Source of the DNA: Chthoniobacteraceae bacterium
GTDB lineage: Bacteria > Verrucomicrobiota > Verrucomicrobiia > Chthoniobacterales > Chthoniobacteraceae
Direction of reading: 5' to 3'
Assembly: GCA_947479475.1 (NCBI GenBank)
Contig: CANJZW010000004.1
Location: 1 to 64,000, forward strand
DNA: 64,000 bases
The notes beneath the pieces were generated by a model that worked only from the letters and a program-made list of their open reading frames with translations, was not told the DNA's origin and searched no databases. Positions within the stretch are counted from its first letter, which is position 1. Each line of letters begins with the position of its first letter. This document shows positions 1 to 47,963 of this stretch, piece by piece. The position numbers and the translations under genes are program-made.

Positions 1-1388
1 GATTCCTTCTTTTGCGCCTCGATGGTTTCCTGGAAACGCTTCTGCATCTCCCCGGAGATCACGAGGTCTGCGGCGAGCTGGTCGTAGAGAAAATCGCCTG
101 GAATGACCGTGCCAATAGGCTTGTCCGCGACGCTCCTGCACGCTTCGTGAGTGACTCGCAACTGGGTGCGCATCTGTGAGGCGGTGCCGCTTGGATCGGT
201 ACTGCGAAGGACTTGCTCCCAAAAACGACGGCGCACCGGCAGAAGCGGATAATCGGGAACGTAGGCGGTGTGATCATCGCCGCGGGTGGCGATACGCGTG
301 GTTTTGAGCTGTCGTGTGATTTCGCCGGAATGCTGGGTTAGAAAGGTGTCTAGCCCGGCGCTCTTGTCTGGTGCCTTTTGGAGCACGACGGTGCGGACGA
401 CTTTTTCAACATCGTTGTCCTTGAGATGAACTTTGATGACAAAGCGGCCCATGATCTTTTGCAGGGCCGGCGTGTCGCTGAGGGCGCTCTGACCGGTGGC
501 GACGAGGAGCAGCTTGCCGTCGAATGATTTTTGGATCATTTCAGCGACTTCCTGAATGTCGTTGGCGATCTTTGCGTCGTCGTTGATGAACTGCTGCACT
601 TCGTCCAGGACAAGGACGGTGAGCGGGAACTGACCATTGCGGGCGAGTGCACGCTTGATATTGAGGGACATGTCCTGAATGGAGATTTCCTCGTTCCTTG
701 CTGGGTACTGTTCTCGCAGGGCCTTGGCCACGGCGTCTACAGAATGGAGATGCGGGTAGACATTCAGGTACGCCTCGTGAAGCGTCTTGGAAACATACAG
801 CTTGTCGAGTTCTCCCCCGGGACCGTCCAAATGTTTGCCGGCGGCAACCAGGCTGGATTTAACTGCATCCAGTTTTCCATCTTCCCGAAGGTCCATTAGG
901 AACCGTGCGTGCGTGAGTTTTTCGGGAAGCCCGACCGATTTGAAGACGATGCCCAACACCCGTAGGCGCACATCGCCCGCGCCCGCTTTGAGGGTGCCTC
1001 CTGCGCTGTGCAATCCACCAAACTGGACGCCGCGAGTGCTGAGTTCGGTGAAAAGGTCCCTCACATCCTGTGGCAGGGAGCACAACTGACGGGAGGAAAC
1101 GCCGTTGGGCAACTTGTGATCAATGAACAGGAAGCGAAGAACCTTAACGAGATGGGATTTGCCACTGCCGTAGAAGCCGCTGACCCAGGCGCCCGTCTGT
1201 TCCTTGCCGATGCGGTCCAGAAAGCCCTGGAGGATTTTGGCGAGGCCCCGTTGGTATTCGCCATCGCAGACAAAGGTGGAGAGTTCGTATTCGAGCGTCG
1301 CAGCGTCGTCGTTGTTGTTGCTCGAAACGCCCTCGTTTCGGAGGGTGACACTCAAGGGGTCCTTGAGAAAAAGCTCGCGGTTTTTCAT
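1..1388 (-). CDS. brxC: BREX ATPase BrxC, N-terminal part (runs off left edge)
   Basis: The visible 462 codons encode the N-terminal part of the large BREX P-loop ATPase; the family is usually about 1,100-1,250 residues, so the rest lies left of the window. The protein opens with the family-typical 'LFLKDP' and 'ELSTFVCDGEY' stretches. A Walker A motif GFYGSGKS lies at about residues 71-78 and a Walker B LTVLVLDE at about 256-263. The ATG overlaps the brxB stop codon as ATGA, so translation is probably coupled. In known BREX systems this ATPase acts with the PglX methyltransferase and PglZ to block phage replication while the host is marked by methylation; those genes should lie further left. 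No frameshift is seen in the visible part. Confidence 0.92.
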   Translation of the reverse strand, partial: MKNRELFLKDPLSVTLRNEGVSSNNNDDAATLEYELSTFVCDGEYQRGLAKILQGFLDRIGKEQTGAWVSGFYGSGKSHLVKVLRFLFIDHKLPNGVSSRQLCSLPQDVRDLFTELSTRGVQFGGLHSAGGTLKAGAGDVRLRVLGIVFKSVGLPEKLTHARFLMDLREDGKLDAVKSSLVAAGKHLDGPGGELDKLYVSKTLHEAYLNVYPHLHSVDAVAKALREQYPARNEEISIQDMSLNIKRALARNGQFPLTVLVLDEVQQFINDDAKIANDIQEVAEMIQKSFDGKLLLVATGQSALSDTPALQKIMGRFVIKVHLKDNDVEKVVRTVVLQKAPDKSAGLDTFLTQHSGEITRQLKTTRIATRGDDHTAYVPDYPLLPVRRRFWEQVLRSTDPSGTASQMRTQLRVTHEACRSVADKPIGTVIPGDFLYDQLAADLVISGEMQKRFQETIEAQKKE

Positions 1389-1951
1389 GGGTGGGAATCA
1401 GCCAAAATGGGGACGGCAAGGTAATCCCAGCCGTCGCGCACGCCCAGGAAGCGGTAGGTGTTACCCTCGCGTTCACCGGGGAAAAAGACGGTCAGGATGC
1501 CTGGGAAATTTCGGTCGAGTCCTTCGATGACCTCGGAAACGTGGAGGAAATCGTACAACTCCATCAAGCCGGTGAGCGCGAACACGGTCCGTTCGCGTTC
1601 CGACTCGGGAACGCTCAAGAGCTGCGCTGTGATGTGGTTTGCCAGAAAATCGCGAAATCCCGGATTGGCGGCGTCTTCGGAAAGCTCGACATCGCGGAGA
1701 TACTGCGAGCGTTCCTCTTCGTCAAAAGAGTCCATCCACTGGGCGAATGCGTTCTCCAGGGAGATCCTGCACCAGCGGAGATTCGCCGAGCGGGCGCAGT
1801 TCTCGAAATCATGGAGCCGCAGCTGGAGGCGTCGCTCCTGGTCGGGGGGATAGACGACAAACCACACCCTTTGGCTGAAAGGAAGGCCGGAGGAAAACGG
1901 TAGTGAAATGTGCCGCTTGTAGCTGGCAATGAGATCGTCAAGCAGTGCCAT
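1385..1951 (-). CDS. brxB: BREX protein BrxB (DUF1788)
   Basis: A 188-residue protein with the hallmark DUF1788 C-terminal end: FFPGE, then about ten residues later RDGWDYLAVPI. The reading frame is open further upstream, but the ATG at 1951 gives the expected family length and start (MALLDDLIASY). It overlaps the end of the preceding gene by 14 bases and shares ATGA with brxC downstream, so the three genes form one translationally coupled unit. BrxB is an essential BREX component whose molecular role is not well defined. No strong Shine-Dalgarno is visible, which fits coupling to the upstream gene. Confidence 0.88.
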   Translation of the reverse strand: MALLDDLIASYKRHISLPFSSGLPFSQRVWFVVYPPDQERRLQLRLHDFENCARSANLRWCRISLENAFAQWMDSFDEEERSQYLRDVELSEDAANPGFRDFLANHITAQLLSVPESERERTVFALTGLMELYDFLHVSEVIEGLDRNFPGILTVFFPGEREGNTYRFLGVRDGWDYLAVPILADSHP

Positions 1952-2660
1952 GGAGGGAGGAAAGTTCGGACTCGTTGAGGAGCGGAGAGAAATCAATTTC
2001 CGTGACACCGCCCGCGTGCCGGAGCCGGAGGAAACCGTGCTTGGAAGCCTCCTTGAGGTGTTCGATCGCCTGAGGAGGGGAAACCGCCACCAGCCTGGCA
2101 AAGACGGACTGCAGCAAAAAATCGCCGCGCAATCCCGTGAGATAACCCGCAAACAGGGCGTAGGTGGTTGCCAGGAAGGACGGGTTTGGAAAGGTGCGTG
2201 TCTTGGTCGAACGTCCTTGGAGGTGGCCGGAGACGGTCCAGCTGGTGTTCACATTCTGGGCCAGAGACTGCTTCATGGCCGGGCTGAAGCGGTCTGGAAA
2301 CAGGGATTCCAGGTGCTCTTCCATCAGGCGCCTGGGAATAACGGTTCCTGGAGAGGTCTGTTCAAGCAGGCTGAAACTGGCCCTGAGCTGAGGATCGCGG
2401 CAGAAAACGCAGACCAGGGCCAGCAGAGGGGTGGCTTCGGGATTAATTGCTGCAAACCGCAATAGAACGCGAAAGAGAGCCTGCGATGCATCCATGCCAT
2501 ACAGTTCGAGCATATGGCGGTAGCTTTTTTGCCGGCTGGTGAACGTGGGTTTGCCCAGGAGGTTTTCTTCCTCAATGAGGCGGCGGAAGTCGGCCGTGTT
2601 GTTAGAACGATTCGCCTGGAGAAGCAACAGCAACTCGGACAGCATCATGGAACGAGCCAT
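1938..2660 (-). CDS. BREX-associated protein in the BrxA position
   Basis: This 240-residue protein is the first gene of the visible BREX operon and occupies the place where brxA (DUF1819) normally sits, directly before brxB. It is rich in helices and contains the stretches 'TSRQKSYRHMLELYGMD' and 'QNVNTSWTVSGHLQGR', which resemble helical proteins found before DUF1788 genes. I am not certain it belongs to DUF1819 itself. The start is uncertain: ATG at 2660 is chosen, but the frame stays open to a TTG at 2771, which would add 37 residues. Its 14-base overlap with brxB supports a shared function. Confidence 0.65.
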   Translation of the reverse strand: MARSMMLSELLLLLQANRSNNTADFRRLIEEENLLGKPTFTSRQKSYRHMLELYGMDASQALFRVLLRFAAINPEATPLLALVCVFCRDPQLRASFSLLEQTSPGTVIPRRLMEEHLESLFPDRFSPAMKQSLAQNVNTSWTVSGHLQGRSTKTRTFPNPSFLATTYALFAGYLTGLRGDFLLQSVFARLVAVSPPQAIEHLKEASKHGFLRLRHAGGVTEIDFSPLLNESELSSLHGTA

Positions 2661-2874: not shown

Positions 2875-3060
2875 CTAGGGATCCTTTCCATTGATGAACC
2901 ACGTCGCAGTCTTGCCCCTGAGTCCACTTCCGAACAACACCATCCGCTTGGCCCGTTTACGTTGTTCCAGGATTCCGCTTTGAGCCAGTCCCATTAGGTC
3001 CGTCCGAGCTGTCTGGTAAGCCCCAGGTCCGTGTGTGCCGGCACAAGCTCTTCATACTGG
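2875..3060 (-). pseudogene. Decayed fragment, possibly C-terminal end of a Fic-type protein
   Basis: Read on the minus strand, one frame ends at a TAG (2875-2877) after about 45 residues containing 'AYQTARTDLMGLAQSGILEQ', followed by a basic stretch. This resembles the winged-helix end of Fic-family proteins, where a Y-x-TAR-x-DL-x-xL pattern recurs. Upstream this frame meets a stop almost at once, and other frames are broken too, so no intact gene is possible. The assignment rests on one short motif only. It could be debris from an earlier defence-gene cargo beside BREX. Confidence 0.35.
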
Positions 3061-3193
3061 AAATAATGCCCGTAGTAACCAGGGCACGTAGAAGCGTGAG
3101 GACGTCTGACATCAGGCCACCGCCAACTGACTTGGCGACCAGGTCCGGTAGGCGGTGTGGAATTTGAGGGAAACGCTCGTCCGAGACAATTTA

Positions 3194-3237
3194 TTACTAA
3201 AAGCGGACTAATTAGTAAAATTTTAGTAGTTTACTAA
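3194..3237. repeat. Cluster of TTACTAA/TTAGTAA half-sites
   Basis: TTACTAA occurs at 3194-3200 and 3231-3237, TTAGTAA at 3212-3218 and the variant TTAGTAG at 3223-3229. The arms TTAGTAAA (3212-3219) and TTTACTAA (3230-3237) form a perfect 8-bp inverted repeat. The position in the divergent intergenic region suggests an operator, or a recombinase/excisionase binding site; this is inferred from position and symmetry only. Confidence 0.5.
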
Positions 3238-3351
3238 CCTCAAGGCAGCTCAAGCCCAGTAATCTGCAAAAGTCAGTCACTTGCGAAAGAAACCAGAGAT
3301 AATTGTTAAGTCATTGTCTCGGTTGGATCTACTGAATTTCCAATAATTACG

Positions 3352-3387
3352 AGACCATTAAATGCCACTCTATGGGTATAATGGTCT
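3352..3387 (+). promoter_or_regulatory. Promoter with flanking 9-bp inverted repeat
   Basis: A consensus -10 box TATAAT lies at 3377-3382, about 55 bases before the ATG at 3437. AGACCATTA (3352-3360) and TAATGGTCT (3379-3387) are perfect 9-bp inverted arms with an 18-base spacer. The right arm overlaps the -10 box and the left arm sits where the -35 should be, which itself is poor. This is the geometry of a repressor operator controlling the gene at 3437. Confidence 0.5.
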
Positions 3388-3436
3388 ACCAGAGTAAATT
3401 GAGTGCACTTTCGCCGCGCAAATTTCCAAACAGATT

Positions 3437-3907
3437 ATGCCACGCCTCAAGAACCGTCTCCACGAACGCTTTGCCTGGCTGATTGCCGAGGGCATGGACC
3501 GCAAAGCTGCTTATGCAAAAATCTGCCCCTTGGTGACTGACCCTGCGACCCTGGGCTGCAAGCTGTACCGGCGCCCTGAGGTGAGGTCTCGGATCGCAGA
3601 GATCCAGGCACAGGTCCAAAGTCGCGCCCTGATGGCCATTGACGAGAAACGGGACCTGCTGCGTCAAATGATTGAGGGAACGGTGCCTACCAAAGTCTCC
3701 AGGCGCAAGGATGGAAGTATGGATGTTGTCTACGATCGGCTGGGGGCGTTGATTGCTGATGCGAAGATGGCCGGTGAATTTGACGGTACGAGCGAGAGAG
3801 ACGGGGCACCGGAGCTGAGTATGACGTTTGCGATGTACCACCGGAACCATCCGAATCCCCCCAGGGAGTGGTTGGACCCGTCGGGCGATGTACGAGACCG
3901 GGTTTAG
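3437..3907 (+). CDS. Terminase-small-subunit-like HTH protein (orphan)
   Basis: 156 residues, ATG start. The N-terminal third has the character of phage terminase small subunits: 'LHERFAWLIAEGMDRKAAY' followed by a segment on chain position ('RRPEVRSRIAEIQAQVQ'), as in the HTH region that binds DNA at pac/cos sites. The middle is charged and helical; the C-terminus is Pro-rich. No large terminase, portal or capsid gene is nearby, so it is either a stranded prophage gene or a DNA-binding protein of this fold used as a regulator. It has its own promoter-like box within an inverted repeat and is divergent from BREX. It lies between BREX and ssrA, a typical island edge. Confidence 0.55.
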   Translation: MPRLKNRLHERFAWLIAEGMDRKAAYAKICPLVTDPATLGCKLYRRPEVRSRIAEIQAQVQSRALMAIDEKRDLLRQMIEGTVPTKVSRRKDGSMDVVYDRLGALIADAKMAGEFDGTSERDGAPELSMTFAMYHRNHPNPPREWLDPSGDVRDRV

Positions 3908-4123
3908 AGAGCCGCTATCCTCGGCGGCAGCAGCGCAACGGAAACCCAGGGAGCTGGAGCGGAGGACGTTTTTCAGGGTTTCTGTTTCTGCAACAAGCCC
4001 GAAAGACATGTCCGCTAGGGAACTTTTTCAACACACGCAAACAAGGGCGAACTTGTACAGCAACAAGGTTACTAGCAAGGTTACTTTTTCACCCAGAAAT
4101 CTGTAAATTGTTCATTTACAAAA

Positions 4124-4485
4124 TGGTGGAGGCGAGGGGAGTTGAACCCCTGTCCTGAAGGCCTTCGTCACAAACTTCTACATGCTTAGCCTCGCTTTTA
4201 ATTTAAGAGAGAAGCCGCCAGCGGGCGGGCAGCTTTTCCCCGGTCGTCCACGGTCGATCTCACCCCCGGAAGCGGTCGCTCCCCCCAAGGGCCAGCCTGC
4301 TGTCGTCGTCTCCATGCCTAGCAGGCGTTGGCTTGGAAACGATGCCGCTTAATTAAGCAGCAAGAGCTAGATCTTCGTAATCGTTAGCGTTTATTTTGTT
4401 TGCCCAGAGATTTTAACGAGGCCAACCAGGCTTCCTCGGCATGCGATCGGTGTCTCCAACTTTCAGTCGAAACCAGTACGCCCCC
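4124..4485 (-). ncRNA. ssrA: tmRNA (transfer-messenger RNA)
   Basis: A one-piece tmRNA of 362 nt, read on the minus strand. The 5' end GGGGGCG (4485-4479) pairs over 7 bp with CGCCTCC near the 3' end, and CCA is encoded at 4126-4124. The T-arm GGGGTTCAACTCCCC and the 5' start 'GTACTGGTTTCGACT' are typical. The tag reading frame runs from GCT at 4388 to TAA ending at 4353 and encodes ANDYEDLALAA. With the alanine carried by the tmRNA itself, this makes a normal LALAA-ending degradation tag. It rescues stalled ribosomes with SmpB. The 3' end faces the BREX side and is a classical island insertion point. Confidence 0.96.
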
Positions 4486-4571: not shown

Positions 4572-5588
4572 TTATTTTTGGGCAGGAGATGGGACGGTCG
4601 CCGCCTTGGGCTGCGGCGGCGCCTTGGGATCCAAGTTCGCCATCAGATCCGCTTCGCTCAACTTGGAGCTCACACCCGCCGTCGGAACCTCCGCGTTGGC
4701 AGTCCACAAGATTGCGTTGAGAACCAGCTTGCGCTGTTCGTCGTTTCCCCAGCCCTTGTGGAAATGGCCGCCAGTGAATCCAAAGCCCCGGCCACCGTCC
4801 TCGCGATCCACCGCCCACGCCACGTGCTGGGCCTTTTTCTCCTCCAGCACCGCCCGCTTTTGATCTGGGTTGCCCCCATGGGAGCTTTCGCCTCGGGTGG
4901 TCGTGGATTCGGGGGGCAGGTCGGTGAGAATGGGGGTCACCCGCTGCATGCCCGGGCGGAAGCGCATGTGGTAGTACCATTCGTCGTTCGTGCTGAATGG
5001 ATTTACCCCGTTGCTGATGGGGTGTTTGGGCAGCTCCTTGAAGTTTGCGTCCCAATGGGGGTTCACCGACCAAAATTGTTCAAAATAGCCGCCCAACCAC
5101 TGAAGGAACTCCGGGGAACCGGCGCCGTTGGAGCTTCTGTCTGGAGGAGGCGTTTGTTTGAGAGGCTTGCCGTCCGCGCCAATCTCGGGTTCTGGCCAGC
5201 CGACTTTGTTGAAAGCGGGTTCGACGGCGTAGTGCAGGCATACGAAGCCGCAGCCGCGCTGCATTTGGGCAGCCAACTCTGCGAGGTGGGGAAGGGCAGG
5301 GTGTCCTGTGCCACCGTCGGAATAAATGACGATGGAGTCGGCTTTTTTGAGGACGGCCTCTTCGGGCCATTGGCCGTTGAGGACAAACTGGACATCGACT
5401 TTATCCGCGGCGTTTTCCTTCAGACATTTGGCGAGAAGCTGGACTCCAGCATTGTGTTCGTGTTGGCCCGGTCCGTGGCTGGGTTTTCCAGCAATCAGGA
5501 GGACCTGACGTTTGGCGTCGGCGGCGTGGGCGAAGGTGCCAAAGAGCGAGAGCGCGAGGGTAGCGCAGAGTGTGTGAGATTTGAGCAT
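4572..5588 (-). CDS. Secreted ThuA-domain protein
   Basis: 338 residues with an N-terminal signal peptide ending around 'FAHAADA'. A single ThuA-like (class I glutamine amidotransferase-like fold) domain fills most of the length: 'LLIAGKPSHGPGQHEHNAG' near the start and 'GRGFGFTGGHFHKGW' near residue 280 are hallmark segments of the PVC ThuA family. The C-terminus is a Pro/Ala-rich tail. ThuA proteins act in pathways that oxidise disaccharides to 3-keto sugars. It lies next to DUF1080, sugar-epimerase and Gfo/Idh genes on the same strand, and a good terminator separates it from the DUF1080 gene. The N-terminal half is homologous in layout to the front of the 1351-residue protein at 24363-28418. 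Confidence 0.85.
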   Translation of the reverse strand: MLKSHTLCATLALSLFGTFAHAADAKRQVLLIAGKPSHGPGQHEHNAGVQLLAKCLKENAADKVDVQFVLNGQWPEEAVLKKADSIVIYSDGGTGHPALPHLAELAAQMQRGCGFVCLHYAVEPAFNKVGWPEPEIGADGKPLKQTPPPDRSSNGAGSPEFLQWLGGYFEQFWSVNPHWDANFKELPKHPISNGVNPFSTNDEWYYHMRFRPGMQRVTPILTDLPPESTTTRGESSHGGNPDQKRAVLEEKKAQHVAWAVDREDGGRGFGFTGGHFHKGWGNDEQRKLVLNAILWTANAEVPTAGVSSKLSEADLMANLDPKAPPQPKAATVPSPAQK

Positions 5589-34184: not shown

Positions 34185-35579
34185 TTAGGGCGCTTTGGGT
34201 TGCACGGAGCGAAGCCGCGTCTTTTCTTCCGCCTCGCGTTTGAGTACGTCGCCCGAATGTTTGGAAAACGACTCGAAAACATCTCCCACAACCCGATCCG
34301 CAAGCTGTCCCAATTTTTTTAAAATCAGATCCTCAGCCTCGGGCTGAAGCACGGACCGGTTGGGCTCATACCCTCCCACCTCATGGGCGGCGGCGGTGGC
34401 GATGTATCCGATGTTGCCGTTCGCATAGCCGACGATGATTGGGGTGGCGCGGTCGGCGATCGCTTTCTCCAGCTTAAATCCGTACTCGACCATCGGCTCC
34501 CCAGGCATGCTCAGAAACAAAAATGGACCCACTTTGATCGCCATGAGTTCCGCATGAACGGGTTGTTCCTTGCCGGGTAAATCGAGCATTTCATTGGCCA
34601 CGCGAATTTTGTAAAAAGTCTCCCGTTGCCGAAGTTTTTCGCGCGTGACGCTGAGGGCGAGCGTGCGCGCGACAGCGCCCCCAAGGTCGCGGCCTGCCCA
34701 CTGGATATCGGCTTCGTCGGCGCAGCGGTACGGATGGCCGGGAAGATTGGGGCGAATGTCTCCTGCGCAACCCTGCAAAAACAGCGCGGAGGTTTTGTTC
34801 CCATAAATGGCCTCCACAAAAGTTTGCGCCTCACCAGGAAAGTCAGCTGAGATCTTTGGGTAGCCTGCAGGGTAGGGGAGCGATCCCTTATCTCCCCAGG
34901 TAAAAAAACACGGGTGGCACACCGCGTGCATCATCACCGCCATGGGCGTAAGCGATTTGCCGTCGTCGAACCGCAGCACCTTCACACGCGGATCGTTGGG
35001 ACCCTCCGCATTTAAACGGATCACCGCACGGCCATCAATGGTCTTGCGCCGGTTGATACCAAACCCGATCCGGTCCTCGCCGTAGCCGATGCTCACGGTG
35101 CGCATTTCGCCCGCCGCCCGCTTAGCCATCACTCCAATGCGTTTTAGAAGCTCAGCTGCCCAAACCGGATTTTCCACGTAGCCCGGTGCGGAGTGGTTGT
35201 GGGACGCCGTTATCATGATGTTGGCCGCTGGAGTTCCTGTCTCCTTTTCAATGCTCTCCCGGGCGAGTTTGACCATGTCTTCCCAGGCGCCGATGGTATC
35301 CATGGTGACAAAGGCCGCTTTGGTATCGCCGTCATCGAGCAGAAGGATGCCAGCTCTCAAGGAATCGCGCACTCCGCTCACTGGTCTCCTGTGCCCAATG
35401 ACAGTGACCGTTGAAGGGTCCTGCGGCGTGATATCAATTTTTGCAACGCCAGCGCGCAAATTGGACCGAACAGGAAACTGCCCGTCAATGAGGGAAGTCT
35501 CTTCAACCGCATTCAGGGTAGGCTTTTGGGCGCCAAAAAGCAGGAGGGTGCAGAAAGTGAGCAGACAAACGGATCTCAT
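34185..35579 (-). CDS. Secreted ceramidase-N-terminal-fold protein lacking the nucleophile
   Basis: 464 residues from the ATG at 35579 with a signal peptide. It has the neutral/alkaline ceramidase N-terminal fold: 'AGVAKIDITPQ', zinc-type 'ITASHNHSAPGYV' and 'MHAVCHPC'. The position of the catalytic Ser (GDxSPN in true ceramidases) reads GDIRPN, so an Arg replaces Ser. That variant is common in PVC bacteria, and such proteins are unlikely to be ceramidases. It is the first gene of the operon with MFS, RidA, sugar dehydrogenase and dipeptidase. Confidence 0.82.
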   Translation of the reverse strand: MRSVCLLTFCTLLLFGAQKPTLNAVEETSLIDGQFPVRSNLRAGVAKIDITPQDPSTVTVIGHRRPVSGVRDSLRAGILLLDDGDTKAAFVTMDTIGAWEDMVKLARESIEKETGTPAANIMITASHNHSAPGYVENPVWAAELLKRIGVMAKRAAGEMRTVSIGYGEDRIGFGINRRKTIDGRAVIRLNAEGPNDPRVKVLRFDDGKSLTPMAVMMHAVCHPCFFTWGDKGSLPYPAGYPKISADFPGEAQTFVEAIYGNKTSALFLQGCAGDIRPNLPGHPYRCADEADIQWAGRDLGGAVARTLALSVTREKLRQRETFYKIRVANEMLDLPGKEQPVHAELMAIKVGPFLFLSMPGEPMVEYGFKLEKAIADRATPIIVGYANGNIGYIATAAAHEVGGYEPNRSVLQPEAEDLILKKLGQLADRVVGDVFESFSKHSGDVLKREAEEKTRLRSVQPKAP

Positions 35580-36056
35580 AAAGGGAGGTGGAATCTTCGC
35601 TAGAGTCAAAATCTGATATTCACACAGATGAGCCGCGCTTTCACTCGCTTCGTGTTTTTATTTAGCTAAAGCCGTTTACCTTCAGGCTAATAAAAACAGC
35701 TTACATTGCGCATCTTTAATTCTGTGCAATATTCCAAGTGCTTCTTCGAGAGGATCGGTGAATCAGGCGGCCAGTTTGCGGCTGATGACGAGTCCCGAAT
35801 CGACCTGGCGCAAAAGGATCAAGCCTCCGTCGGTGCTTGAAACACGAACGGCGGGGTCCATTTTAGCAAAAAAGCCACAAAATTGAGAAAATCAGACATC
35901 TGTATTTCTCCCTTCCGTCAGGTTACTCGGACCTTTCCACACGCTGAGACGGCAAATCAACGATGACGGGCGCGTTACGCCCTGGAAAACTGCCAAGTTT
36001 CATTTTTTTCGGCAAATGAGGCCGCCTGTTGTGACATTGAATCGGTACCCTTCGAT
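35580..36056. other. Divergent intergenic region
   Basis: 477 bases between the leftward ceramidase-fold operon and the rightward sigma-factor locus. It should carry promoters for both and includes a transposase remnant at 35763-35861. The segment 35600-35720 is AT-rich; no clear -35/-10 pair was picked out. Confidence 0.5.
35763..35861 (-). pseudogene. Fragment resembling IS1380-type transposase N-terminus
   Basis: A 32-codon frame begins at ATG 35861 and contains 'STDGGLILLRQVDSGL', like the GG-LLLRE-D start of IS1380-family transposases, then ends in TGA (35763-35765) right after 'SRKLAA'. The same frame continues a few residues upstream of the ATG before a stop. No terminal repeats or catalytic part are seen. 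It is a decayed remnant at most. Confidence 0.4.
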
Positions 36057-36581
36057 ATGCCCCAGCCTCTTGATCCCCAGCAAGACCAGTTTCTCCGCCT
36101 TTATGCCGAGCAGGAACAGTCGCTGCATGGGTATGTAAGATCGATGCTTCCAGACCGGCACGCAGCCTCCGAGGTGATGCAGGAAGTCATCGTCACGTTG
36201 TGGCAGAAATTCGAGGGAGCCGATGATTTCAGAAAGTGGGCCTTCGGAGTGGCGCGCATGAAAGTACTACACTATCTCCAGCGGCGAAAGCGGGACCGCC
36301 ATGTTTTCAGTGAAGAACTCGTCCAGCAGCTTGCGGAGAGGCAAGCGGAACTGGGGCCTCGGCACACCACGCAACGCGAGGCGCTTGAGCATTGTTTGGA
36401 AAAGCTCCATCACGATCAACGTGTATTGGTGCTCACAGCCTACACAAAAGGAACACGCATGGACGACCTGGCGGCTCAACGCGGAGAGACAGCGATGGCG
36501 TTGTACAAAAAACTGCATCGCCTTCGGCAGGGATTGCTGGAGTGCGTTCGAAGGACCCTGGCTTTGGAGGAACCGGTATGA
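36057..36581 (+). CDS. ECF RNA polymerase sigma factor (Verrucomicrobium-type)
   Basis: 174 residues. Region 2 is visible in 'LHGYVRSMLPDRHAASEVMQ' and 'FRKWAFGVARMKVLHYL'; region 4 with its HTH is 'YTKGTRMDDLAAQRGETAMA'. The layout matches the ECF group described from Rhodopirellula/Verrucomicrobium. Its stop overlaps the ATG of the next gene (ATGA), the usual arrangement with an anti-sigma factor. It stands at the head of the ~28 kb plus-strand glycan locus and most likely controls it or a related regulon. Confidence 0.92.
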   Translation: MPQPLDPQQDQFLRLYAEQEQSLHGYVRSMLPDRHAASEVMQEVIVTLWQKFEGADDFRKWAFGVARMKVLHYLQRRKRDRHVFSEELVQQLAERQAELGPRHTTQREALEHCLEKLHHDQRVLVLTAYTKGTRMDDLAAQRGETAMALYKKLHRLRQGLLECVRRTLALEEPV

Positions 36582-45911: not shown

Positions 45912-47963
45912 ATGAGATTACTTTTATTCTCCCTCGTTTGTTTTTTTGCAGTCGCACTGACCCCCTTGCTGTATGCGAGTGAACCGCACGCTCCGGCACT
46001 TTCCGATTTTCTCGAACAGCACTGCACCGCGTGTCATAACCCGGAAAAGCTCAAGGGAAAAATCAACCTCAAGCCGATGTCCGCCTCTGCCGCACATTCG
46101 GATGCGGACCTTTTAGAGCGGGTGATGGACGTAATCTCATCCGGGGAAATGCCTCCGGAGGAAAAGCCCCGGCCTTCGCAGGCGGATGTCGGCTCCGTTT
46201 TGGTGCATCTGCGCAAAATTCTTAGCGCTGCGCGCTTGAGAGATGGGATCACTCCCGATGACCCGGGCAGGGGCAACGACGTGGATCATTCCGCACTTTT
46301 CACCGAACCGGAGGTGCGAAAGGCTGCCGCGCCCTCGCGACTCTGGCGGATGAGTCCGCACCTTTTCATGCAAAGGGCGAATGCGCTGACTCAAAACCGG
46401 CTGTTCCTTTATCCGAACCGGAACCTCGGCAAGGACGCGCTTCATCCGGCCTTGAGTTACTTGGCTCCTCCTCACGCATTCCGAGACCATGCAGGTATTC
46501 ACCGCCTCGAGGGCACAACCACCGAACTGCTTTTTGACGTTTGCTGGCAGATAGCCGGGCTGCAGGTGGCTCCTGCGAAACCTGCCCGCCCGCTGCCGGC
46601 GTTTGAAGTGCTGTTGTCTGCTGCAGAGCCGGATGATGCGGCGTGGGAGGGCGCGATCCGGGAGCAGTTCAATGTGTCCATGCGGCGCGCACCGCGGACG
46701 GATGAGATTTCCGGTCTTGTCCGGCTGGCGAGGGCGACTGAATCCGGGGGTACGCGGGCCCTCGCATTGCAGACCCTGCTTGCGGCCGTCCTGCTCAAGC
46801 CCGATGCGGTGTACCGCTACGAGATCGGCCGGGGTGAACCCGACGAGATTGGACGCGTGATGCTAGCTCCCCACGAATTGATGCATGCCGTTGCTTACGC
46901 CCTCACAGACTTTGCACCGGACGAACCCTTGCGGCGAGCTGTGGCCGAGGGAAGGTTCACAACGCGCAAAGACGTGGAGCGGGAGGTCAAGCGCGTGATT
47001 GAAACAACCGATGCCGCGATGCCTCGGTTGCTGCGCTTCTTCCAAGAGTATTTTGAGTACCCCCGCGCCACGGATGTCTTCAAGGACACGCGGCCCATGG
47101 GGCTTTCCCAGGCGGTCTACCGCATCGAAGATGCTGATGCGTTTGTGCGGTGGATACTCCGGGAGGACCGGGATGTCCTCAAAAGGCTGCTGACTGAGGA
47201 CCGTTATTTCATGGGAACCGACGTGCTGGCGAATGTGCCGAACCATGTCCGGCGTTTCAGCGGTTACTTGTTTGCCGACTATGGTTTTCAAAAGGACACC
47301 ACGTGGTCCTCCGAGTGGAAGACCAAACCGACGACGCCCCCTGTGGGCAAGCGTGCCGGCATGTTGACTCACCCGGCGTGGCTGCTGGCTTTTTCTGACA
47401 ACGAGAAGAGCCAGGCAATCCAGCGAGGTCGCTGGATTCGCACCAAGCTGCTGGGTGGAACCGTTCCCGAGACTCCCATCGGAGTGGATGCGAAACTTCC
47501 CACTGACTCCGAGCTGACGTTGCGCGAGAAGATGGAAAAAGTGACCCACGCAGACTATTGCTGGCGCTGTCACCAGCGGATGGATCCGCTGGGCCTGCCG
47601 TTGGAGCAGTTTGACGATTTCGGGCGCTGGCGGGAGGAAGAAAAAGGAAAACCCGTGGTGACCACGGGAGAAATCCGGATCGGGGATCCCGCGTTGGACG
47701 GCCCTGTGAAAGACCCGTTTGAAATGATGGAGAGGCTTGCCCGCTCCGAGCGTGTCGAGCAGGTGTTCGTGCGCCACGCGTTCCGGTATTTTCTTGGCCG
47801 CAACGAAACCCTCGATGATTCGCCCACGCTGATTGACGCGCACCGGGCCTACCGCGCGAAGGGCGGAAGCATGAAAGCGCTGGTGGCTTCGCTGTTGATC
47901 TCAGACTCCTTCCTCCTCCGCCAACAACCCACGTCCAAAGACAGGCAATCCACTGCTCAATGA
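45912..47963 (+). CDS. Planctomycete-type cytochrome c / DUF1588-DUF1592 family protein
   Basis: 683 residues from the ATG at 45912 with a signal peptide. It has an N-terminal haem motif CTACHNPEKLKG (planctomycete cytochrome C type) and a C-terminal DUF1588-like region with 'YCWRCHQRMDPLGLPLEQFD', a second CxxCH. The middle corresponds to the DUF1592-type helical part. Such proteins are usually paired with a DUF1552 protein, as here: the next gene overlaps it by four bases. They are periplasmic; function unknown, probably redox or secretion-linked in carbohydrate use. Confidence 0.88.
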   Translation: MRLLLFSLVCFFAVALTPLLYASEPHAPALSDFLEQHCTACHNPEKLKGKINLKPMSASAAHSDADLLERVMDVISSGEMPPEEKPRPSQADVGSVLVHLRKILSAARLRDGITPDDPGRGNDVDHSALFTEPEVRKAAAPSRLWRMSPHLFMQRANALTQNRLFLYPNRNLGKDALHPALSYLAPPHAFRDHAGIHRLEGTTTELLFDVCWQIAGLQVAPAKPARPLPAFEVLLSAAEPDDAAWEGAIREQFNVSMRRAPRTDEISGLVRLARATESGGTRALALQTLLAAVLLKPDAVYRYEIGRGEPDEIGRVMLAPHELMHAVAYALTDFAPDEPLRRAVAEGRFTTRKDVEREVKRVIETTDAAMPRLLRFFQEYFEYPRATDVFKDTRPMGLSQAVYRIEDADAFVRWILREDRDVLKRLLTEDRYFMGTDVLANVPNHVRRFSGYLFADYGFQKDTTWSSEWKTKPTTPPVGKRAGMLTHPAWLLAFSDNEKSQAIQRGRWIRTKLLGGTVPETPIGVDAKLPTDSELTLREKMEKVTHADYCWRCHQRMDPLGLPLEQFDDFGRWREEEKGKPVVTTGEIRIGDPALDGPVKDPFEMMERLARSERVEQVFVRHAFRYFLGRNETLDDSPTLIDAHRAYRAKGGSMKALVASLLISDSFLLRQQPTSKDRQSTAQ

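What the first reader, a model, noticed from the sequence alone, without database searches (positions are those of the whole stretch)
2875..4140. ssrA 3' end as the likely insertion point of the defence island
ssrA 3' ends are a classical island insertion point. Here the ssrA 3' end (4124) faces the BREX genes, with an orphan phage-like gene and gene debris in between and core-type genes on the other side. No integrase is seen in the window.
Basis: inference. Interest (0 to 1): 0.5.

Follow-up and report, generated by a model that had tools for sequence, protein, structure and literature searches.

The report
tmRNA-integrated defence island, satellite-like
A block of anti-phage genes sits at the 3' end of the tmRNA gene of an uncultured Verrucomicrobiota bacterium, where site-specific mobile islands plug in, and it carries a shortened phage DNA-packaging gene that related defence islands also keep, as if these islands live off phages while defending against them.

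Summary
ssrA (4124-4485, -) is intact, and its 3' end is an island attachment site. Against congener G001, identity is about 75% upstream of ssrA but 99.7% over the 3 kb downstream (orphan gene, brxA, brxB, start of brxC), while other congeners carry unrelated genes there. Just beyond the ssrA CCA lies an attachment-site anatomy: an inverted repeat, then two direct repeats 12 bp apart (8 of 26 family ssrA genes versus 1 of 258 control stretches). Relatives hold complete ssrA islands with 30- and 54-bp end repeats and a tyrosine integrase beside the distal repeat. The distal end of the window's own island is not in this fragmented assembly.

The "orphan phage-like gene" is not debris. It is a small terminase (TerS) homologue. 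Twelve island copies form one clade (100/100) apart from 23 phage copies, evolve under purifying selection (dN/dS about 0.09), and lack the C-terminal tail of the phage proteins. Eleven of 13 intact copies lie beside a tRNA/tmRNA end or an integrase. Two complete islands carry type I R-M and Hma; the window carries BREX. I read these as satellite-like defence islands whose tail-less TerS may redirect or block phage packaging. The insertion site is well supported; the TerS function is inferred.

The parts
4124..4485 (-). ssrA (tmRNA), intact; tag ANDYEDLALAA; its 3' end restores the attachment half-site
4100..4153 (-). inferred attachment core: last 30 nt of ssrA plus 24 nt beyond CCA; corresponds to the 54-bp exact repeat that flanks the ssrA island of G005. 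Window and G001 differ at +3 and +17, inside it
   Evidence: by alignment
4102..4120 (-). TGTAAATGAACAATTTACA, inverted repeat directly beyond CCA (core-site-like)
   Evidence: the role is inferred
4064..4084 (-). GTAACCTTG-CTA-GTAACCTTG, two direct repeats 12 bp apart starting 40 nt from CCA: probable integrase arm-type sites (P' arm)
   Evidence: the role is inferred
3437..3907 (+). island small-terminase-like gene, 156 aa, convergent with ssrA, stop codon ending 216 bp from the ssrA 3' end; lacks the C-terminal tail of phage TerS
1938..2771 (-). brxA (longest ORF; true start may be a later codon)
1385..1969 (-). brxB
1..1388 (-). brxC, first 462 codons; runs off the contig
4572..5588 (-). 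ThuA-like gene, first gene on the chromosomal side; lies in the stretch that is about 75% identical to G001

Best explanation
The ssrA 3' end at window 4124 is the attL of an integrated island that begins at about 4123 and runs leftwards off the contig. A tyrosine integrase, encoded at the unseen far end, recombined attP into ssrA and rebuilt the ssrA 3' end. SHOWN: intact ssrA, identity step, repeat anatomy, variable downstream content in relatives, and complete ssrA and tRNA islands in relatives with the integrase beside the distal repeat. INFERRED for this copy: the distal repeat and integrase. The island belongs to a family of tRNA/tmRNA-targeted, satellite-like defence islands. In the complete copies studied the layout is RNA gene, core, P' arm, TerS-like gene, defence cargo (type I R-M or Hma; BREX in the window), integrase, P arm, core. 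The TerS-like protein is related to phage small terminases, kept the DNA-binding and oligomerising part, and lacks the C-terminal tail. I propose (inferred, with the E. coli PICI protein Rpp as precedent) that during phage infection it joins phage TerS or competes for its DNA site, steering packaging towards the excised island and away from the phage.
For: Identity step: BLASTN 74.7% over 2954 bp upstream of ssrA versus 2990 of 3000 aligned bases identical downstream. Gene content downstream of ssrA differs among relatives. The 12-bp-period repeat (perfect 8-mer) occurs in 8 of 26 ssrA genes versus 1 of 258 control stretches from the same loci. Complete ssrA islands: G015, 30-bp repeat, 56.7 kb, integrase 35295-36452; G005, 54-bp repeat, integrase 46423-47565, on two contigs; G020, 4.3 kb, integrase-like ORF by layout. 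Complete TerS-bearing tRNA-Arg islands: G005:C32, 20.7 kb, 33-bp repeat, integrase, type I R-M; G005:C14, 22.3 kb, 67-bp repeat at 95.5%, integrase, HmaABC. P and P' arms share 7-mers in 4 of the 5 islands compared; in the fifth, G102, only two unrelated 7-mers are shared. TerS: one clade 100/100 of 12 island rows against 23 phage rows; median dN/dS 0.093, 59 of 66 pairs usable; the 13 best PDB hits of the model are all small terminases; the phage homologue in L217 lies upstream of a large terminase. Satellite-type genes beside the G005:C32 integrase: HTH_17/excisionase-like, primase-like, replication-initiator-like.
Against: No second ssrA end in this genome and no second exact or near-exact copy of the arm pair in G000 or G001, so the far end of this very island is unseen. 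pglX and pglZ of type 1 BREX are also absent from G000, so BREX here may be truncated or simply unbinned. Foldseek E-values are weak (best 0.03). The regulator and replication assignments in G005:C32 are weak (E 0.008, 5e-7, 0.003), NCBIfam names none of the three, and G005:C14 shows no such genes in its ORF list. Three TerS copies lie at an integrase 3' end rather than at the RNA gene. 15 of 26 ssrA genes show no repeat of 7/8 or better. Several TerS copies in G000 are broken.
Confidence: 0.8

Rival explanations
1. Ordinary genomic island at ssrA: a tyrosine-integrase element with BREX cargo, in which the TerS-like gene is a passenger without a satellite role.
For: tmRNA is a classical insertion site used by many elements (passage of PMC10121019). 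The integrases are generic PF00589. Several TerS copies are broken.
Against: Purifying selection on TerS, one clade, and 11 of 13 intact copies beside an attachment end or integrase.
Confidence: 0.35
2. Decaying prophage: the TerS-like gene is the last remnant of a prophage at ssrA, into which BREX was later inserted.
For: The homologues in IMG/VR lie in the terminase region of phages.
Against: Island copies are separated from the phage copies by a fully supported branch, are intact and selected, and no structural phage gene was recognised in the two complete islands by the searches run; not every ORF was searched.
Confidence: 0.08
3. Homologous recombination: the region downstream of ssrA was exchanged between species by general recombination, not by site-specific integration.
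For: The 99.7% block in G000/G001 could arise this way, and brxC is mosaic (81-96% in 200-base windows beyond 3 kb).
Against: It does not explain the attachment anatomy, nor the repeats and integrases at ssrA in relatives.
Confidence: 0.07

Closest known systems
Phage-inducible chromosomal islands (PICIs/SaPIs) of Gram-positive and Gram-negative bacteria (PMC6092414, passages read)
   Same: Integrase at one end and sometimes a terS gene; attachment-site integration. Regulator and pri/rep-like genes after int in one island (weak matches).
   Different: G005:C32 and G005:C14 are about 21-22 kb against about 15 kb. Cargo is whole defence systems. Target sites are tRNA/tmRNA. Induction, packaging and interference untested.
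Rpp proteins of E. coli PICIs (PMC6739421, passages read)
   Same: A TerS-like, probably TerS-derived protein without the TerL-binding C-terminal part, encoded on an island.
   Different: Here the N-terminal and central part stays about 50-60% identical to phage TerS and only the tail is missing. No interaction data.
tmRNA (ssrA) genomic islands, e.g. Dehalococcoides ssrA-GIs (PMC3146451, passages read) and E. coli tmRNA hotspot #9 (PMC10121019, passages read)
   Same: Insertion at the ssrA 3' end, a repeated ssrA end, tandem islands.
   Different: Dehalococcoides uses a serine recombinase; here it is a tyrosine integrase with arm-type repeats, and TerS is linked.
BREX type 1
   Same: brxA, brxB, brxC order.
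   Different: pglX and pglZ not found for this copy, brxL not searched.

Membership tests
ssrA-integrated genomic island | junction at the ssrA 3' end with an identity or synteny break | tested here: met
ssrA-integrated genomic island | repeat of the ssrA 3' end at the far boundary | tested here: inconclusive
   not in this assembly, whose contig ends inside brxC; present in G005, G015, G020 and G102
ssrA-integrated genomic island | site-specific integrase in the element | tested here: inconclusive
   unseen for this copy; next to the distal repeat in G005 and G015, by layout in G020
PICI | integrase, master regulator and pri-rep module | tested here: inconclusive
   weak matches in G005:C32, unnamed by NCBIfam, not apparent in the ORF list of G005:C14, out of view in the window
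PICI | terS homologue (optional) | tested here: met
PICI | no phage structural or lytic genes | tested here: inconclusive
   none recognised in the parts searched of G005:C32 and C14; not every ORF was scanned
PICI | attachment sites never used by prophages | not tested
   -
PICI | phage-dependent induction, packaging and interference | not testable with these tools
   -
BREX type 1 | brxA, brxB, brxC in order | tested here: met
BREX type 1 | pglX, pglZ, brxL | tested here: inconclusive
   pglX and pglZ not found in G000, contig ends in brxC; brxL not searched in G000; all three present in congener G009

The most novel reading that the evidence does not exclude
Uncultured Verrucomicrobiota carry a family of defence islands at tRNA and tmRNA genes that are phage satellites. 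Each keeps a 'tail-less' small terminase, a domesticated phage packaging protein that blocks or redirects the packaging of phages using the same TerS family, while the cargo (BREX, R-M, Hma) attacks phage DNA. Packaging interference and DNA-level immunity would thus travel as one unit.
Probability: 0.35. Interest if true: 0.75.

Novelty: new variant of a known kind. Interest (0 to 1): 0.5.

Why it matters
tmRNA as an island site is textbook. The new part is the consistent pairing, in uncultured Verrucomicrobiota, of whole defence systems with one conserved, selected, tail-less TerS lineage placed beside the attachment end or integrase. If it works like Rpp, it would show that packaging piracy evolved independently in another phylum, and would give a marker gene for finding such islands and their attachment sites.

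Tried and rejected
Distal repeat in G000: 29-mer at up to 3 mismatches, core motif, and arm motif all gave no second full site. The best core-motif side hits were C93 directly 3' of tRNA-Cys (kept as an observation), C49 and C189 at 3 mismatches (dropped). Own integrase on C100 first looked like the missing ssrA integrase because it resembles that of G005:C44; its own attachment end is a tRNA-Val-like 3' piece (read by eye), so it was rejected. BREX continuation: G001:C31 pglZ is a different PglZ type (PDLC02565) beside a different integrase and was not taken as the continuation. Idea that the 392-aa gene downstream of ssrA in G008/G011 is an integrase: it is a Fic protein. Idea that G006:C79's second terS-type gene belongs to the same family: it does not; it hits Terminase_2/phrog_51 but no other ORF in the set. 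Rows dropped: 3 of 29 loci marked 'partial?' were left out of the count, 7 of 66 pairs gave no usable dS, 3 rows (G011_C94, G120_C234, RGPS01) were in neither group. Of the loci fetched, G031, G035 and G036 were not analysed further. Many second hits (GAATCCCCTTGCC type) look like ordinary tRNA ends and were not counted as islands.

Full report
WHAT IS THERE. The window is the first 64 kb of a 97-kb contig of a 5.07-Mb, 214-contig assembly. Relatives with the same orphan gene are MAGs titled by their depositors as Spartobacteria, Chthoniobacteraceae, Akkermansiaceae and others, that is Verrucomicrobiota. ssrA lies at 4124-4485 (-), intact. Its 3' end faces a 156-aa orphan gene (3437-3907, +) and then brxA, brxB and the start of brxC, which runs off the contig. 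No integrase is on the contig.

IS SSRA THE INSERTION POINT? Congener G001 has the same genes on both sides. Upstream of ssrA the two genomes are about 75% identical (74.7% over 2954 bp, 80.7% over the next 1191 bp). Downstream, 2990 of 3000 aligned bases are identical, and beyond that brxC is mosaic, 81-96% in 200-base windows. Other congeners carry unrelated genes downstream: among the 9 same-genus genomes compared (own included), only G000/G001 and G008/G011 share their first genes. ssrA was found in 24 of 29 genomes; three of the five misses (G003, G007, G010) are same-genus.

ATTACHMENT ANATOMY. Directly beyond the ssrA CCA there is an AT-rich inverted repeat and, starting 40 nt out, two direct repeats with a 12-bp period, GTAACCTTG in the window. 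In 26 family ssrA genes, 8 have a perfect 8-mer repeat at that spacing and 11 have at least 7/8; in 258 control stretches further downstream of the same loci the figures are 1 and about 10%. Fifteen of 26 show no such repeat. The same layout follows tRNA-Cys on G000:C93. I read the inverted repeat as core-type and the direct repeats as arm-type integrase sites (inference; textbook knowledge of lambda-type integrases, recalled).

COMPLETE ISLANDS IN RELATIVES. G015:C3: ssrA and a 30-bp exact repeat 56.7 kb apart, integrase 35295-36452 just inside. G005: ssrA at the edge of C66, 54-bp exact repeat on C44, integrase 46423-47565 just inside (PF00589 5.5e-22). That 54-bp repeat includes the 24 bases beyond CCA, so the core reaches past the gene. 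Accordingly the only two substitutions between G000 and G001 in the first 24 bases beyond CCA (+3, +17) fall inside it. G020: 4.3-kb island with an integrase-like ORF, read by layout. G102: 3.8 kb, no integrase seen. P and P' arms share 7-mers in G005:C32, G015, G020 and the G005 ssrA island, hardly in G102. The own genome shows no second ssrA end and no second arm pair; pglZ and pglX are also missing. The simplest reading is that the rest of this island was not assembled or binned.

THE ORPHAN GENE. It is a family with 24 listed matches in 9 of 147 related genomes, 7 of them in G000, several broken. Profiles say terminase small subunit (phrog_51 1.7e-5; no Pfam; no NCBIfam). The AlphaFold model (pLDDT 82, pTM 0.50) finds small terminases as its 13 best PDB matches, all with weak E-values (0.03-1.2). 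IMG/VR holds 26 loci with homologues at 50-64% identity; in L217 the homologue precedes an ORF with large-terminase matches (phrog_36964 9.7e-17). In a tree of 38 rows, the 12 island copies are one side of a 100/100 branch and the 23 phage copies the other; 3 rows were ungrouped. dN/dS among the island copies is 0.04-0.18, median 0.093, in 59 of 66 pairs. In the alignment the phage proteins (179-214 aa) continue into a tail that contains a P-x-[LI] motif near its end; the 12 island proteins stop at 153-174 aa without it.

WHERE THE ORPHAN SITS. Of 13 intact copies (the 12 of the tree plus G001:C74), 8 have a tRNA/tmRNA 3' end or piece within 700 bp at E below 1e-6 (window, G001:C74, G005:C14, C32a, C32b, G006:C79, G001:C148, G001:C101), 3 lie at an integrase 3' end (G000:C97, G003:C114, JAPJNB01), and 2 (G009:C147, G009:C171) had neither by these tests, although G009:C147 has a tRNA-like piece (22.6 bits, E 3.6). 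In five measured cases the TerS stop codon ends 135-220 bp from the RNA end. In G001:C101 the tRNA piece points the other way, and in G001:C148 it is truncated at its 3' end.

CARGO. G005:C32 (27.0-47.7 kb): 33-bp repeats at tRNA-Arg, integrase, HTH_17/excisionase-like, primase-like and replication-initiator-like proteins (weak), GmrSD-like, type I R-M (REase_I 1e-303, MTase_I 9.8e-175), TerS. A second TerS copy follows the distal repeat, so islands stand in tandem. G005:C14 (35.4-57.8 kb): 67-bp repeat at 95.5%, integrase, HmaA/B/C, TerS. The window: BREX. So three TerS islands, three different defence systems.

MECHANISM. Integration at ssrA by a tyrosine integrase is the best-supported step. 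In the circular form TerS, attP and int would be adjacent and co-directional in the G005:C32 layout (deduced from coordinates). In E. coli PICIs, Rpp is a TerS-like protein that lacks the TerL-binding part, pairs with phage TerS, blocks phage packaging and favours the island (PMC6739421, passages); the paper states that lambda TerS binds TerL through its C-terminal portion. A tail-less TerS under selection on defence islands fits that logic, but no binding or packaging has been tested, and the sequence does not exclude a regulatory role.

KNOWN OR NEW. ssrA islands, tandem ssrA islands and defence cargo at tmRNA are known. PICIs with terS are known. The combination seen here was not found in the seven searches run, judged by their listings.

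Noticed in passing
L107:3442-3569 (+), L109:7535-7662 (-), L195:262-389 (-): SAM-I/IV riboswitch-like RNAs (42.2, 38.3, 40.9 bits; gathering 41.1) on three TerS-bearing contigs. In L107 one stands upstream of a DUF3293 gene and hsdM; L109 also carries a SAM-synthetase-like gene. This may be SAM-responsive control of methyltransferase defence operons.
   Followed up: partly
G000:C63 (L103:1672-2108) and G009:C171 (L116:5504-5941): A frameshifted and an intact TerS copy with apparently identical 3' flanks in two species (read by eye): another recent transfer.
   Followed up: no
G006:C79 (L113:2353-2841, +): A second, different small-terminase-type gene (PF03592 2.6e-5) abuts the 3' end of an integrase; no relative among 4836 ORFs of the fetched contigs.
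   Followed up: partly
G000:C93 tRNA-Cys; G000:C100 next to an integrase; G000:C97: The same core and 12-bp-period arm layout after other tRNA genes or tRNA pieces: the genome probably holds several tandem islands.
   Followed up: partly
window 1-1388 versus L033: brxC switches from 99% to 81-96% identity to G001 about 260 bases into the gene: mosaic exchange within brxC, and both assemblies break inside the gene.
   Followed up: no
L117:7914-7972 (-): Type II hammerhead ribozyme-like match (31.1 bits, below gathering 37) on a TerS-bearing contig.
   Followed up: no
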